Notes under the pieces: generated by a model
What the model was told of the DNA's origin: nothing
Database searches by the model: none
What the model saw: only the letters and a program-made list of their open reading frames with translations
Source: a candidate division WS1 bacterium
Lineage (GTDB): Bacteria; Armatimonadota; Zipacnadia; Zipacnadales; UBA11051
DNA length: 36,777 nt
Assembly: GCA_012518355.1 (NCBI GenBank)
Contig: JAAYSP010000230.1
Span: forward strand, 1 to 36,777
Direction of reading: 5' to 3'
Shown: in pieces, positions 3,531 to 30,968 of the stretch
How the letters are laid out: every line of letters starts with the position of its first letter
How positions within the stretch are numbered: position 1 is the first letter of the stretch
Translations under genes and position numbers: made by a program

Positions 3531-4973
3531 CTACTCTTCCCCGCCATCGGCCTGTGCAGCTTCCGATTCGCTACCGGATGCTTCGGCCACCGTCTCCGGT
3601 GACGTCTCGGTGTCGTCAGCAGCAGAGTCTGCGGGCTCGGGCTTAGATTGCTCAGTCTGGTCAGTGGACGTATCCTCAGGCACAGACGCCGGCTGTTCGG
3701 CGACAGCTGGCACTTCGGGATCGGCTGCCACAGCCGCCTGCTTAAGTATGTCACCAAACTGGTCGCCCAGGGTAACACGTGCAGTCTCCTGCCCCGCCAT
3801 GTACTCGCGGTACTCTGCCCGCTCTCTATCCTGCTCAGCAGCCACCAGACTGAGGGTCATGCGTCTGGCTTTAGGGCGCATCTCAGTTATCTTCAGCTCC
3901 AATTCCTGACCGGCTCGCACCACTTCTGAGGCCTCAGCAATTCTCTTGCTGCTCATCTCGCCGATAGGTATGAAGCCCTCGATGTCATGCTCAATCAACT
4001 GGGCGAAGGCACCGGTGCGCACCACGCGGCTGATACGAACCTTGACCGTATTGCCGACACGCAACTTGCGGCCGATTTCTTTCCATGGATCAGGCAAAAT
4101 GCGGCACCGTGAGAGCGAGATGCGATCGGTTTCGGGGTCCACCTCCAGCACCACCACGCGGACAGTATCACCCACGCTGACTACTTCTGACGGGTGCTTG
4201 ACACGGGTCCAGGCCATCTCCGACACGTGTAGCAGCCCGTCCACGCCGCCGAGATCTATAAACGCACCGTAGTTGGTCAAATTCCGCACCTTGCCCTCGC
4301 ACTCGACACCTTCCTGCAGCCGTCCCAGGGTTTCCTGACGACGCTTTTCGCGCTCTGCTTCTACCACAGCCCGGTGCGACAGGATAACCTTTTTGGATTT
4401 GCGGTCTACTTCCAGTACGCGCAAGCGTAGAGACTGGCCTACATAGCGCTCAAGATTACGCAGATTTCTGGAGGCGACCTGCGAGCCAGGCACGAAACCG
4501 GGTACACCGACGTCCACTCGCAGCCCACCCTTGACCCGCTCTGTCACCAACGCCTCCACCACTTGCTGGCTTTCCGCAGCTTCGGCAAGCCGATTCCATA
4601 CCCGTTCCCAATCGGCCCGACGCTTGGACAGCCGCACCTGGCCCTTGTCTTCGTCAATTCGCACAACCGCCACTTCCAGCTCATCGTCAACTGCCGGCAA
4701 CTCATCCGCAGAGGGGAACTCGGAAATCGGCACAATGCCCTCGTCCTTGCTGCCGATATCTACCGATACCCACTGGCTGTCGACGCCAGCAACTATGCCC
4801 TTGACTATGTCGCCAACTTCGACCTGGACAGGCATGGCCTGCTCCAGTGCATCTTGAAGCGACGTATGCTGATCTGTCTGGTCATCAGCATCACCTGACT
4901 GAGAACTACCCTCGGACGCAGCTTGAACATGATCTTCGTGTTGCTTCTTAGAGTCTTCGACATCCCAAGACAT
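3531..4973 (-). CDS. rpsA: 30S ribosomal protein S1 (four S1 domains, acidic tail)
   Basis: S1 binds mRNA on the 30S platform and helps start translation on weakly led messages. The 480-residue product has four S1 OB-fold repeats: VEVGDIVKGIVAGVDSQWV, then the weaker EALVTERVKGGLRVDV, then GKVRNLTNYGAFIDLGGVDG, then VKVRISRVVRTGAFAQL. Repeat three has the classic YGAFIDLGGVDGLLHVSEM signature. Four domains are fewer than the six of E. coli, as in many non-proteobacteria. The last 70 or so residues are an acidic, low-complexity Glu/Asp/Ala/Ser tail. The ATG at 4973 has GGAGG 10 bases upstream. The 135 bases before it, after polA, hold no clear promoter or terminator. Confidence 0.93.
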   Translation of the reverse strand: MSWDVEDSKKQHEDHVQAASEGSSQSGDADDQTDQHTSLQDALEQAMPVQVEVGDIVKGIVAGVDSQWVSVDIGSKDEGIVPISEFPSADELPAVDDELEVAVVRIDEDKGQVRLSKRRADWERVWNRLAEAAESQQVVEALVTERVKGGLRVDVGVPGFVPGSQVASRNLRNLERYVGQSLRLRVLEVDRKSKKVILSHRAVVEAEREKRRQETLGRLQEGVECEGKVRNLTNYGAFIDLGGVDGLLHVSEMAWTRVKHPSEVVSVGDTVRVVVLEVDPETDRISLSRCRILPDPWKEIGRKLRVGNTVKVRISRVVRTGAFAQLIEHDIEGFIPIGEMSSKRIAEASEVVRAGQELELKITEMRPKARRMTLSLVAAEQDRERAEYREYMAGQETARVTLGDQFGDILKQAAVAADPEVPAVAEQPASVPEDTSTDQTEQSKPEPADSAADDTETSPETVAEASGSESEAAQADGGEE

Positions 4974-24920: not shown

Positions 24921-25381
24921 GTGTCAATCACCTCGACGCTGCCACCGGCGGCTTCGATCTTGGCTCGTGCCGACTCGCTGAAGGCATGGGCGCGCACTGT
25001 AAGTGCATGCTGTAGTTCGCCATTACCAAGTACCTTGAGCCCCTTGGCCTCCAGCTTGTTGACCATACCAACTTCCACGACCAGCTCGGGTGTCACCGCG
25101 GTGCCAGCCTCGAATCTCTGCAGATCATCGAGGTTGATAGTGCTGTGGCGCTTACGGAAGATCCCGATGTTGTGGGCCTTGTTGCTCTGGCCGCGCAGCT
25201 TCGGCAGACGCTTGTGAAGCGGGGTCTGGCCGCCTTCCAATCCCGGAGGGATCGAGTAGCGTGCCTTCTGCCCCTTCTGTCCGCGGCCGGAGGTCTTGCC
25301 CCATCCGCTGCCGTGGCCGCGTCCGACCCGCTTGCGACCGGCCTTATTCGTTCGTTTTGGTCTGAGATCAGTAAGGTCCAT
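24917..25381 (-). CDS. rplO: 50S ribosomal protein L15
   Basis: A late-assembly 50S protein. The 154-residue product has the glycine-rich start [25 protein letters not shown] and FEGGQTPL-like [18 protein letters not shown], both diagnostic. The ATG at 25381 has AGGAG 8 bases upstream and is preferred to an in-frame start at 25405. It overlaps secY by four bases. Confidence 0.96.
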
Positions 25382-25424: not shown

Positions 25425-25637
25425 TTACTCTGCTGGCTCTAACTCAACCAGATGAGACACCTGGTTGATCATGCCTCGCACCGCATCAGTGTCCTCATGT
25501 ACTACACTTTGTCGTACCCTATGCAGGCCAAGTGCCCGCAGTGTGGCCCGCTGGGAAGGCTTGCATCCTGTATGTGAGCGGGCAAGTGTGACTCGAATTA
25601 CGTCTGGGGCCTTCCTCTGAGCGTTCTGATCAGTCAT
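25425..25637 (-). CDS. rpmD: 50S ribosomal protein L30
   Basis: A small 50S protein of 70 residues. [25 protein letters not shown] and [23 protein letters not shown]-like [10 protein letters not shown] match the family. The ATG at 25637 has AGGAGG about 10 bases upstream. Normally rpsE comes directly before it; here rplR does, with only 81 bases between the two genes. Confidence 0.94.
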
Positions 25638-25722
25638 CGGGCTTTCCCCTCCTACTTTTCAGATCTGGCCGCTCGTTGCGCCCTCGGTTTGCATCCGCGA
25701 CCCGTTGAAGTGCCGGGCTCAA
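25630..25722 (-). other. Short basic frame at the place where rpsE (S5) should be
   Basis: A 30-codon frame runs from a TTG overlapping the rplR stop to a TGA overlapping the rpmD start. It encodes an Arg-rich peptide containing NRGRNERPDLK and ending SRRGKPDD. Many S5 proteins have an Arg-rich N-terminus and a C-terminus like RGKxxEE, so this could be a scar of an in-frame deletion that joined the two ends of rpsE. The similarity is short and unproven, and it may be chance. No other trace of S5 is in the window. Confidence 0.25.
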
Positions 25723-26087
25723 AAGTCCAGGCCGGCCTCCCGTGCTGCATCGGCAAGAGCGGCCAGTTTGCCATGCGCTGGCCAACCGCCCCGGTCAAAT
25801 GCAACCTTCGTGATACCTGCATCCACCGCTCGCTTCCCGATAGCTAGCCCCACAGCCCGCGCAGCGGCTATATTGCAGGCGTCGCCTGCTTCTCGTGCCA
25901 CTTCAGGCTCCAGGGTTGAGGCCGCAACTAGCGTGTGATGCGACCAGTCGTCTATCACCTGAGCACTGATATGCTTGAGCGACTTATACACCGACAATCT
26001 CGGGCGCTCAGGTGTACCTTCTACCTTGCGGCGAACCCGCAAGTGCCGCTTGCGTCTCTGGATAACTTTGCTACTTGTCTTCGCCAT
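25719..26087 (-). CDS. rplR: 50S ribosomal protein L18
   Basis: Binds 5S rRNA in the central protuberance. The 122-residue product has [37 protein letters not shown] and ends [27 protein letters not shown], as in L18. The ATG at 26087 aligns with the family start, although no clear ribosome binding site precedes it; an in-frame GTG at 26159 would add 24 unrelated residues. It lies between rplF and rpmD, with rpsE missing after it. Confidence 0.94.
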
Positions 26088-26165
26088 AATACAGCGCCGT
26101 CCCACTTTGTTGATGCTCGACTCGTACTCGTACGTACCTTCTTCCAGCCTGGGCGTCACAAGCTA

Positions 26166-27231: not shown

Positions 27232-27252
27232 ACCGAGTCGGGCGCACTCGGT
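27232..27252 (-). promoter_or_regulatory. Hairpin at the rpsN stop
   Basis: ACCGAGT (27232-27238) and ACTCGGT (27246-27252) are perfect 7-base inverted arms with a 7-base loop, touching the rpsN stop codon. It may attenuate transcription or protect the mRNA in the long rpsN-rpsH gap. No T-run follows. Confidence 0.35.
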
Positions 27253-27437
27253 CACCAACTCGCTTTCCCGACTCCGGGAATGTTGCCGTGCAAGGCGTTC
27301 TCACGAAAACAGATCCGGCAGATACCAAAGGCGCGCATGTAGCCGCGCCGACGGCCGCATAGGTGGCAGCGGTTGACCCGCCGGGTTGCAAACTTCACGT
27401 CTTTGGACTGCCTGGCTATCCACGATGTTCTTGCCAC
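27252..27437 (-). CDS. rpsN: 30S ribosomal protein S14 type Z
   Basis: A 61-residue S14 of the short zinc-binding type. The ligands are in [24 protein letters not shown] (CxxC ... CxxC), and it ends with the conserved [16 protein letters not shown]. The start is GTG at 27437; only a weak GGGTGAT sequence precedes it. It lies between rplE and rpsH as usual. Confidence 0.96.
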
Positions 27438-28886: not shown

Positions 28887-30968
28887 CTACTCTTCGGTCT
28901 CCCGCTCGTACTCAGCGACGATACCAGGTATGAGGTGAGCGGGGACTTCCTCGTAACCGGCCTGGGTCATGGTGTAGGTCGCACGGCCTTGACTGATGGA
29001 GCGAAGGTCTGCCGCATATCGCCGTAGCTCAGCGTACGGAGCCGTACCACGTATGAGCTGCAATCCGCCAGCGATGCCTTCGGTGCCCTGAATGCGGCCC
29101 CGACGGCCTGACAGATCGCTCATCACATCGCCCATCAGCTCTTCCGGAACGGTGACCTCTACATTCATCACCGGCTCCAGCAGAACACAGTTGGCTTCAG
29201 CTAAGGCGTTGCGTACCCCAATCTGTCCGGCCATCTGGAAAGCCTGGTCAGACGAGTCGACAGGATGTGAGCTGCCATCATCGAGGGTGACCTGCACATC
29301 AACCACCGGTGAACCGGTCAGTGTCCCCTTCTCCAGTTGGGCAACCACGCCTTTTTCCACAGCAGGGATATAGTTAGTGGGTACGGAAGCACCCTTGATT
29401 TCGTTGACGAACTCAAAGCCGGCATCTCGTGGCAGTGGAGCCACTCTGATCCACACATCACCAAACTGCCCTCGACCACCGGTCTGCTTCTTGTGACGCC
29501 CCTGCACACGGACAGAGGTCGTAATAGTTTCGCGATACGGCACCTTGGGCTCGTTGAGAGTAACCGACGCCTCATACTTGCGTGCCAGTTTTTCAACAAC
29601 TACGTCCAGGTGAAGAGCGCCCATTCCGCGTACCAACATCTCACCAGTGCTGGGGTCTCGCCCAAATGTGAAGCCTATGTCCTCCTCAGCCAGACGCGCC
29701 AGACCCGTTGACAGCTTATCCTCGTCAGCATGTGAGGCGGCGGAAGCAGCGGCTGCGTGCATCGGCGCTGGCAACTCCGGCGGAGTGAACACCACCGGCG
29801 CCTTGGGGTCACACAGCGTGCCCCCACTCAGAACACCTTCGAGCTTAGTCACACAGCCCAGGTCGCCTGCCGATAGTGCAGGCACCTCGCTCATCTTGTT
29901 GCCCTGGAGAGTTGCAAGACCACTCAGGCGTTCTCTATCACCAGTAGCAGCGTTGATGACGTTGGCATCAGCCACCGCACGTCCGGACACCACACGCATC
30001 AGGCTAATCCGGCCCACGTATGGGTCGCTGAGAGTCTTGAACACGACTGCAGCGAACGGCTCATCATCTTTACATGCTCGCTCTATACTGGTGTCCGGGT
30101 TTTTAGGATCGCTGCCCTGAAGACTTTCGCGCACATCAGGGGCTGGGCACACAGCTGCAATTCCCTGCAGAAGAGCACCGATGCCCAGAGAGTTGTATGC
30201 GTCCGTCATCATGACAGGCACGATTTGCCCTGCGGCAGTGGCGGCGGCCAGGCCCGAAGTCAGCTCTTCCTGGCTAAGAGTACCGGTCTCCAGGTACTTT
30301 TCGATGAGCTGCTCATCCGTGGCGGCTACAGCATCCACCAAAGCTTCTTGAGCGGCTTCGACATCTGCGCGCATTTCATCGCTGATATCGGCCCAGCTCC
30401 CGCCCTTATCCGAGCCAGTGAGCATCTTGCCACTGAGAAGGTCAGCCACACCCTGGAAGCCAGCCTGCTTGCCAACAGTCACCTGGATCGGAACGGCTTC
30501 GGCGCCTTGCAGCATTTCATTGATGCTTGCGACTGCGGCATCAGGATCTGCGTGCTCACCGCTCATCTTGTTGACCACGGCTATCATCGGCAGGCCCATT
30601 TCGGAACTGATCTGGTAGAGCTTGTGAGTGTGCACTTCGACCCCGGCGGCCGCATCTACAACCATGACCGCACAGTCGGCTATCCACAGGCAGTACACCA
30701 CTTCGGCGAAAAACTCGGCATACCCGGGCGTATCGATGATGTTGATCTTCGTATCTTTGTGCATCACGTTGCTCAGGGCTGGTCCGATAGAAATTTTGCG
30801 ATTGCGCTCTTCTGGATCGAAATCGGACACCGCATTGCCGTCGTCTACCCGGCCGAGCCTGTTGGTCGCTCCGCCGGCAAACAGCATTGCTTCAGTAAGG
30901 GTCGTCTTGCCACAACCACGATGCCCTACCAATGCGATGTTTCGAATTTGGGAAGTACTATTGGTCAT
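28887..30968 (-). CDS. fusA2: EF-G-like translational GTPase (EF-G2 type)
   Basis: A 693-residue, five-domain EF-G paralogue. G1 is GHRGCGKT (residues 15-22), where canonical EF-G has AHIDAGKT. The switch I region [17 protein letters not shown] (45-61) is typical of EF-G2-like proteins. G3 is DTPG (79-82). G4 reads NKMS (133-136) instead of NKxD. Domain IV keeps [18 protein letters not shown] and the tip [10 protein letters not shown]; domain V keeps [15 protein letters not shown]. The ATG at 30968 has GGAGG 7 bases upstream. It sits between rpsQ and rplN inside the ribosomal operon. The normal fusA would be expected upstream of tuf, outside the window, so this is probably an extra copy. Confidence 0.9.

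What the first reader, a model, noticed from the sequence alone, without database searches (positions are those of the whole stretch)
25630..25722. rpsE (ribosomal protein S5) is missing from the spc operon
The order L6-L18-S5-L30-L15 is near universal, and S5 is found in all known cellular life. Here rplR and rpmD are intact, but only 81 bases lie between them and S5 appears nowhere else in the window. The residue is a 30-codon Arg-rich frame with ends that overlap the rplR stop and rpmD start. Its start (NRGRNERPDLK) and end (RRGKPDD) look a little like the two ends of an S5 protein, so it might be the scar of an in-frame deletion after rpsE moved elsewhere. An assembly error or strain collapse is the main alternative.
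Basis: partly seen in the sequence, partly recalled or inferred. Interest (0 to 1): 0.75.

Follow-up and report, generated by a model that had tools for sequence, protein, structure and literature searches.

The report
Ribosomal gene rpsE left its operon
In a class of uncultured bacteria the essential ribosomal gene rpsE no longer sits in the gene cluster where related bacteria keep it, and appears to stand alone with its own start signal, a hairpin at the start of its message and, in most genomes looked at, its own stop signal.

Summary
Between rplR (stop 25719) and rpmD (start 25637) lie 81 bases and no S5. It is neither assembly error nor loss: the same genome holds one intact rpsE (268 aa) on another contig, between hrcA and groEL. 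In the window's class (Armatimonadota; 'Ca. Zipacnadia' by matching records) 44 of 44 spc junctions lack S5, and S5 and L18 are on different contigs in 38 of 38 genomes with both. In the sampled other classes 134 of 135 genomes with both keep S5 beside L18; the other is cut by a contig end. Class S5s form one clade (99/98), so one old displacement is likely. The 'scar' reading fails. New: relocated rpsE looks like a self-contained unit with a conserved promoter, a stem-loop at the predicted mRNA 5' end (34 of 38 loci examined) and usually a terminator (28 of 37). A promoter-hairpin model recovers rpsE, and nothing else as strongly, in 22 genomes, all in its training set. Inferred mechanism: independent expression, with the stem-loop stabilising or regulating the mRNA.

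The parts
25638..25718 (-). rplR-rpmD intergenic junction (81 bases), where rpsE sits in the other Armatimonadota classes
   Evidence: sequence; S5-free in 44 of 44 class spc loci
25630..25722 (-). 30-codon frame proposed as a scar; reads as ordinary intergenic DNA
   Evidence: no own start codon; similarity to S5 within shuffles; no NCBIfam match for the 51-aa ORF that contains it
25719..26087 (-). rplR, 50S ribosomal protein L18 (upstream flank of the junction)
   Evidence: TIGR00060 117.8 bits on ORF 25719-26159; ATG at 26087 chosen by me
25425..25637 (-). rpmD, 50S ribosomal protein L30 (downstream flank of the junction)
   Evidence: TIGR01308 80.4 bits
24917..25405 (-). rplO, 50S ribosomal protein L15 (true start probably ATG at 25381)
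   Evidence: TIGR01071 139.8 bits
26166..26714 (-). rplF, 50S ribosomal protein L6
   Evidence: TIGR03654 235.9 bits
26748..27143 (-). rpsH, 30S ribosomal protein S8, whose E. coli counterpart represses the spc operon (PMC10931766, passages)
   Evidence: NF001109 176.9 bits
23589..24920 (-). secY, downstream gene of the spc cluster
   Evidence: TIGR00967 395.1 bits

Best explanation
rpsE was displaced, most simply once, from the spc cluster in the ancestor of this Armatimonadota class ('Ca. Zipacnadia'), and the old site closed without a recognisable trace. The gene now works as a free-standing transcription unit: a near-consensus extended -10 promoter, a leader that begins with a stem-loop at the predicted 5' end, a ribosome binding site, the S5 gene, and in most genomes an intrinsic terminator of its own. 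Because the unit carries its own signals it does not depend on fixed neighbours, and its neighbours differ between families. Shown by computation: the displacement, its extent in the class, single copy. Predicted: promoter, mRNA start, hairpin, terminator. Inferred: that S5 output is set by promoter strength plus the 5' stem-loop (most likely by protecting the mRNA end from decay, less likely by autogenous control) instead of by co-transcription and S8-mediated control of spc.
For: One intact rpsE in the own genome, TIGR01021 180.3 bits against a cut-off of 164.05. Exactly one S5 match in each of the 40 class genomes that have one, of 46 searched. S5 and L18 on different contigs in 38 of 38 class genomes with both; no S5 in 44 of 44 class spc loci, while 18 of 18 control spc loci from other classes give a hit. 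S5 beside L18 in 134 of 135 sampled genomes of other classes with both genes (132 by position; G079 and G110 by loci); the last, G097, is cut by a contig end with S5 followed by L30 and L15. The 40 class S5s are one clade, 99/98. Promoter plus hairpin in 34 of 38 loci examined, four set aside as ambiguous. Hairpin region mean -16.0 kcal/mol against -8.0 (sd 3.7) for 3400 random windows and -7.5 (sd 5.1) for 53 promoters of the same type, 3 of them rpsE. Model R1 over 46 class genomes: 22 sites at 43-62 bits, all rpsE and all in training; best other site 30.9 bits. On held loci it also marks the rpsE upstream region in 7 of 18 class loci not in training (17-25 bits). Terminator score of 20 or more after rpsE in 28 of 37 loci, against 4 of 164 other gene ends and 4 of 296 random windows.
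Against: All genomes are drafts (the named relatives are metagenome-assembled) and no transcript data exist here. The promoter finder always returns its best site and the stem finder always returns a stem, so single loci can be chance; several rpsE start codons were set by hand. R1 is limited to its training families: genome-wide it found no rpsE in the other 18 S5-bearing genomes, and in G034 and G042 its only hits (28-30 bits) are not at rpsE; the non-training hits (17-25 bits) are no stronger than one hit away from rpsE (L056, 19.4 bits). In 6 of 46 class genomes no S5 was found, presumably assembly gaps. Genus g1, the window's own, has leaders of 114-287 bases against 44-66 in most others, with 79, 87 and 117 in f8, f5g17 and f7. 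Of six hairpins folded alone, four beat shuffles clearly (z -2.3 to -5.9) and two weakly (z -1.5, -1.6). Covariation is modest: 2 of 7 pairs have changes on both sides, which 103 of 500 shuffles match, on sequences I chose for their like hairpins. S5 could have been replaced from outside the phylum rather than moved.
Confidence: 0.85

Rival explanations
1. The 5' stem-loop leader is an autogenous operator: S5, or another ribosomal protein, binds the rpsE mRNA leader and represses its own translation, replacing the S8 control that the gene lost. (A variant of the best explanation, so the odds overlap.)
For: In the families of its training set the promoter-hairpin is specific to rpsE; arms differ between families while a stem is kept; free-standing ribosomal protein genes with autogenous control are known (bL25, PMC10931766, passages). 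In families f1, f3 and f6 the 5' arm CCUCCC could also pair with the ribosome binding site (read from the sequences).
Against: Loop sequences and lengths vary widely and f5, f7 and f8 have other stems, unlike a sequence-specific protein site; the alternative pairing with the ribosome binding site is not evident in f5; no Rfam family matches in the four loci scanned; the main text of PMC7247131 names no uS5 or rpsE leader (find).
Confidence: 0.25
2. Xenologous replacement: the free-standing rpsE came by horizontal transfer from another phylum, and the native spc copy was then deleted.
For: In the tree the class S5s fall with the outgroups, apart from 18 of 19 other Armatimonadota S5s, at a weak fork (62/92), on a stem branch of 0.64. 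The own S5 core is as close to outgroups (mean 45.5%) as to other Armatimonadota (46.1%), whereas L18, L15 and SecY are closer to the phylum (52.8 against 47.2, 52.9 against 44.4, 49.2 against 39.6).
Against: Holding class and phylum together is not rejected (p-AU 0.327). S8, L6 and L30, which stayed in the operon, also show no clear phylum signal in plain identity (54.9 against 54.9, 49.5 against 48.2, 43.5 against 46.9). No donor was seen among nine outgroup sequences.
Confidence: 0.2
3. Assembly or binning error: rpsE was dropped at the junction and the C166 copy is a contaminant contig.
For: Draft assembly of 243 contigs with 4.03% contamination.
Against: 44 of 44 class junctions agree; two congeners (G001, G003) carry rpsE between hrcA and groEL in the same order and a third (G004) beside hrcA near a contig end; G+C of C166 is 0.588 and of the window 0.578.
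Confidence: 0.01
4. The 30-codon frame is the scar of an in-frame deletion of rpsE, or a small gene.
For: The frame overlaps the rplR stop and the rpmD start.
Against: No S5 similarity above shuffles; junction length not conserved.
Confidence: 0.02

Closest known systems
Single-gene departures from the S10-spc-alpha cluster in Gammaproteobacteria and Bacilli (rpmJ, rpsN, secY; PMC8046335, passages read)
   Same: One gene leaves the cluster, the operon order stays, and a copy exists elsewhere in the chromosome.
   Different: In the passages seen these are single species or small clades, and rpmJ (and apparently rpsN) had a second copy beforehand. Here rpsE is displaced in a whole class, as a single copy, with a conserved promoter-hairpin leader. 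The word 'rpsE' does not occur in that paper's main text.
5'-terminal stem-loop mRNA stabilisers of the ompA/papA type (recalled; titles seen in the reference list of PMC3997798)
   Same: A stable stem-loop within a few bases of the predicted mRNA 5' end.
   Different: Effect not tested; the gene is ribosomal; mRNA start only predicted.
Ribosomal protein leaders with autogenous control (S8 on spc, bL25; PMC10931766, passages; leader survey PMC7247131, find)
   Same: Structured leader in front of a ribosomal protein gene.
   Different: No conserved loop seen; no S5 leader named in what I saw of those papers.

Membership tests
Displaced ribosomal protein gene (single-gene departure from the spc cluster) | Gene absent from its usual place while the flanking order is kept | tested here: met
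   44 of 44 class spc loci
Displaced ribosomal protein gene (single-gene departure from the spc cluster) | Intact copy elsewhere in the same genome | tested here: met
   own genome C166, 268 aa, TIGR01021 above cut-off; an S5 match in 40 of 46 class genomes
Displaced ribosomal protein gene (single-gene departure from the spc cluster) | Canonical place in relatives outside the group | tested here: met
   134 of 135 sampled genomes with both genes, the other cut by a contig end
5'-terminal stem-loop mRNA stabiliser | Stable stem-loop within a few bases of the mRNA 5' end | tested here: inconclusive
   best stem starts 2-12 bases after the predicted -10 box in 33 of 34 loci (25 of them 6-11), 17 in the other; mRNA start not measured
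5'-terminal stem-loop mRNA stabiliser | Disrupting the stem shortens mRNA life | not testable with these tools
   needs an experiment
Autogenous ribosomal protein leader | Leader specific to the gene and conserved in structure | tested here: inconclusive
   R1: 22 rpsE sites at 43-62 bits, all in training, nothing else above 31 bits, but rpsE not found genome-wide in the 18 other S5-bearing genomes; 98.7% of cells paired, modest covariation
Autogenous ribosomal protein leader | Conserved protein-binding motif that mimics rRNA | tested here: inconclusive
   loops differ widely between families; no comparison with 16S rRNA was run
Autogenous ribosomal protein leader | Protein represses expression through the leader | not testable with these tools
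   needs an experiment

The most novel reading that the evidence does not exclude
When rpsE left the spc operon it gained a leader RNA of its own that lets S5 (or the ribosome's state) control S5 synthesis: a first rpsE-specific ribosomal leader, evolved to replace S8-mediated operon control and kept across a bacterial class while the gene's neighbours changed.
Probability: 0.22. Interest if true: 0.7.

Novelty: new variant of a known kind. Interest (0 to 1): 0.52.

Why it matters
S5 is universal, and its place between L18 and L30 held in 134 of 135 sampled genomes of the other classes of this phylum. A whole class in which this one gene is free, apparently since the class began, with its own conserved promoter, leader hairpin and terminator, is a natural experiment on a standing question: why ribosomal protein genes stay together, and what must replace co-transcription and S8 control when one of them leaves. 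It also gives a synteny marker for the class.

Tried and rejected
Scar of an in-frame deletion: not supported. Assembly error or contaminant contig: rejected by congeners and class. Second rpsE copy: none at E 1e-3, one match per genome where found. A fixed new home for rpsE: not found. hrcA and groEL flank it in G000, G001 and G003 and hrcA lies beside it in G004; ilvD and ilvB homologues (named by me from the printed sequences, not by a family search) lie within 7 kb in G005, G030, G037 and G041 in different orientations; other genes elsewhere. By a rough count of mine such a triple coincidence has a chance of a few percent, so an ilv-linked ancestral site is only a hint. HGT origin of S5: neither shown nor excluded. 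The quick concatenated tree put families f9 and f10 beside f14, f31 and f34 (support 92), which would have meant two displacements or a return; a tree with the class held together scored higher (6.84 log units, p-AU 0.66), so this was dropped. The first promoter pattern was off by three bases in spacing; it was repeated with the right spacing, and loci of both calls were used (53 promoters with a locus; the two calls list 26 and 143 matches, partly the same). Alternative pairing of the 5' arm with the ribosome binding site: possible in some families, not evident in f5. Rfam: no match in four loci. Paper searches: 'Zipacnadia'; rpsE, Armatimonadota, ribosomal protein S5; spc operon, ribosomal protein, gene order, rpsE, relocat; ribosomal protein operon, spc operon, S10 operon, rearrange, gene cluster; rpsE, spc operon, autoregulat, leader; Armatimonadota, ribosomal protein, operon, gene order; stem-loop, mRNA stability, ompA, RppH, RNase E; rpsE, outside, ribosomal protein cluster, spc, gene order conservation. 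Their listings showed no title or abstract start that reports this displacement; full texts were not read, only passages of five papers. The class paper PMC10290634 holds no 'rpsE', 'ribosomal protein' or 'synteny' in its main text.

Rows dropped before counts. Of 40 class S5 loci, L055 and L061 had no start candidate and were not entered in the promoter table; of the 38 entered, L118, L119, L046 and L040 were set aside as ambiguous, leaving 34 (by eye L046 and L040 do carry a stem after a promoter-like site, and L118 and L119 a weaker promoter). R1 was trained on 22 of the 34. The terminator count uses 37 loci: L055 and L061 not entered, L058 ends before its stop. The gap statistics use 39 of 44 loci, five having no start call. 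The phylum sample is 161 genomes of at least 80% completeness drawn evenly from a larger group, 136 of them outside the class. An earlier count said the stem starts 6-10 bases after the -10 box in all 34 loci and gives 1-6 for the reversed-pattern control; the figures in this report (2-12 in 33 and 17 in one; 1-4) are the right ones.

Full report
1. The observation. The window's minus strand carries S17, an EF-G, L14, L24, L5, S14, S8, L6, L18, L30, L15 and SecY (S14 is named by eye from the 61-aa ORF 27252-27437). Between the L18 stop (25719) and the L30 start (25637) are 81 bases. No S5 lies in the window.

2. Where S5 went. PF00333 finds exactly one S5 gene in the own genome (G000, 3.09 Mb in 243 contigs, 93.7% complete, 4.03% contamination), at C166:2599-2790. 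The gene (L002:2551-3357, 268 aa) passes the TIGR01021 cut-off (180.3 against 164.05 bits), and residues 11-188 align with the best solved S5 chain. It lies between hrcA and groEL/groES, all three on the other strand. Two congeners, G001 and G003, show the same order; G004 has hrcA beside rpsE near a contig end; the 5-kb contig of G002 shows none of these neighbours.

3. How widespread it is. The class is therefore most likely 'Ca. Zipacnadia' of the Armatimonadota (name proposed in PMC10290634, passages). Of 46 class genomes held, 40 have an S5 match and 44 an L18 match; in all 38 with both, the two are on different contigs. The spc junction was read in 44 genomes and none has S5, while 18 of 18 control loci from other classes do. 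Of 136 sampled genomes of other classes (completeness 80% or more), both genes were found in 135; G156 has neither. In 132 they lie within 800 bases, in G079 and G110 the loci show L18-S5-L30, and in G097 a contig end falls between L18 and S5, with S5 still followed by L30 and L15. The displacement marks the class.

4. One event, of unsettled source. The 40 class S5s form one clade (99/98), and a tree of four proteins that stayed in the operon (S8, L6, L18, L15) is compatible with the class as one clade, although the quick free search had placed three other-class genomes inside it. A single displacement at the base of the class is the simplest account. Whether the native gene moved or was replaced from outside is open. 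The class S5s do not join the other Armatimonadota S5s (weak fork, 62/92), and S5 lacks the closeness to the phylum that L18, L15 and SecY show in plain identity; but S8, L6 and L30 lack it too, and holding class and phylum together is not rejected (p-AU 0.327).

5. The relocated gene looks like a self-contained unit. Upstream of rpsE a script that takes the best-scoring site found, in the 34 loci kept out of 38, TTGAC(A/T/C) with a spacer of 17-18 and an extended -10; in their alignment TTGAC and GnTAnnnT are invariant. This promoter type is common in the four class genomes tested (24-57 matches each against 1-4 for the reversed pattern). Close behind it begins a stem: 2-12 bases after the -10 box in 33 of 34 loci, 25 of them 6-11, and 17 in the other. 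The 35-base energy averages -16.0 kcal/mol, against -8.0 (sd 3.7) for 3400 random windows of the same loci and -7.5 (sd 5.1) for 53 promoters of the same kind, 3 of which are rpsE itself. Arms differ between families: GCCTCCC/GGGAGGC or close to it in f1, f6 and most of f3, GCCCCCG/CGGGGGC in f5, others in f2, f7 and f8. On the alignment of 22 sequences of the first kind 98.7% of cells pair, with five doubly changed cells against 1.1 in shuffles; but only two pairs show changes on both sides, which 103 of 500 shuffles match. Six hairpins folded alone gave z from -1.5 to -5.9.

6. Specificity. A covariance model of promoter plus hairpin (R1, 22 sequences) was run on all 46 class genomes: 22 hits at 43-62 bits, all upstream of rpsE and all in training; the best of the other hits had 30.9 bits. 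So in those families (f1, f6 and most of f3) no other gene has a leader as close. The limit is plain: genome-wide R1 did not find rpsE in the 18 other S5-bearing genomes, and in two of them (G034, G042) its only hits, at 28-30 bits, lie elsewhere. On held loci it marks the rpsE upstream region in 7 of 18 class loci not in training (L051, L053, L055, L057, L059, L061, L116; 17-25 bits), gives one hit away from rpsE (L056, 19.4 bits) and none in the 12 canonical spc loci of other classes included. No Rfam family matched the four loci scanned.

7. The 3' end. A terminator-like inverted repeat with a T tract and a score of 20 or more follows rpsE within 130 bases in 28 of 37 loci, against 4 of 164 other gene ends and 4 of 296 random windows. 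In the own genome it is a stem of 11 with a loop of 10. Neighbours of rpsE differ from family to family.

8. Mechanism. The anatomy says that rpsE has its own promoter and in most genomes its own terminator. In E. coli, S5 is made from the spc mRNA under S8 control (PMC10931766, passages); here that link is cut. The constant addition is a stem-loop near the predicted mRNA end with changing sequence and loop. That fits a structural role such as protection of the 5' end from decay better than a protein site with fixed letters, but the rpsE specificity in three families keeps autogenous control alive. I put about 50% on a stability role, 22-25% on autogenous control, the rest on other uses or none. 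None of this was measured.

9. The scar. The 30-codon frame scores no better against S5 than shuffles (246 of 1000 as high against the own S5; 150 of 200 as high against any of 68), and the junction length varies across the class. It is ordinary spacer.

10. Known and new. Departure of single genes (rpmJ, rpsN, secY) from this cluster is documented in Gammaproteobacteria and Bacilli (PMC8046335, passages). The searches named under Tried and rejected showed no report of an rpsE displacement or of this leader; the library holds open-licence papers only, and how often rpsE is displaced in other phyla was not surveyed here. I rate it a new variant of a known kind.

Noticed in passing
L067-L069, L071-L074, L076, L080, L083, L087 (family f3, genera g5, g16, g19): rpmD (L30) is also gone: no L30 between L18 and L15, and PF00327 finds none in 11 of 11 such genomes searched, while 3 of 3 genomes of genus g10 of the same family keep it. 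Here the gene seems lost, not moved.
   Followed up: yes
window 28887-30968 (-): An EF-G gene (NF009381 819 bits, over its cut-off; TIGR00484 604 bits, under its cut-off) lies inside the ribosomal cluster between S17 and L14; in several loci of other Armatimonadota classes an EF-G lies upstream of S8 at a shorter distance.
   Followed up: partly
L002:3067-3354 and the other class S5 loci: Class S5 proteins carry C-terminal tails of 23-129 aa past the aligned core in 39 of 40 loci (one cut by a contig end), mostly rich in D and E; the exception is G043 of family f9 with 3 aa. Some other Armatimonadota have acidic tails too.
   Followed up: partly
L002:3411-3559 and 3586-3734: A 149-base direct repeat (96%) lies right after rpsE in the own genome, in its terminator region.
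   Followed up: no
L002:2388-2551 and L032-L035 upstream of rpsE: In genus g1 the predicted leader is 114-287 bases long instead of 44-66 as in most other genera, and poorly conserved past the hairpin.
   Followed up: no
L036, L058, L063, L115: ilvD and ilvB homologues (named from sequence by eye) lie within 7 kb of rpsE in three families, in different orientations: a possible trace of an ancestral insertion site.
   Followed up: partly
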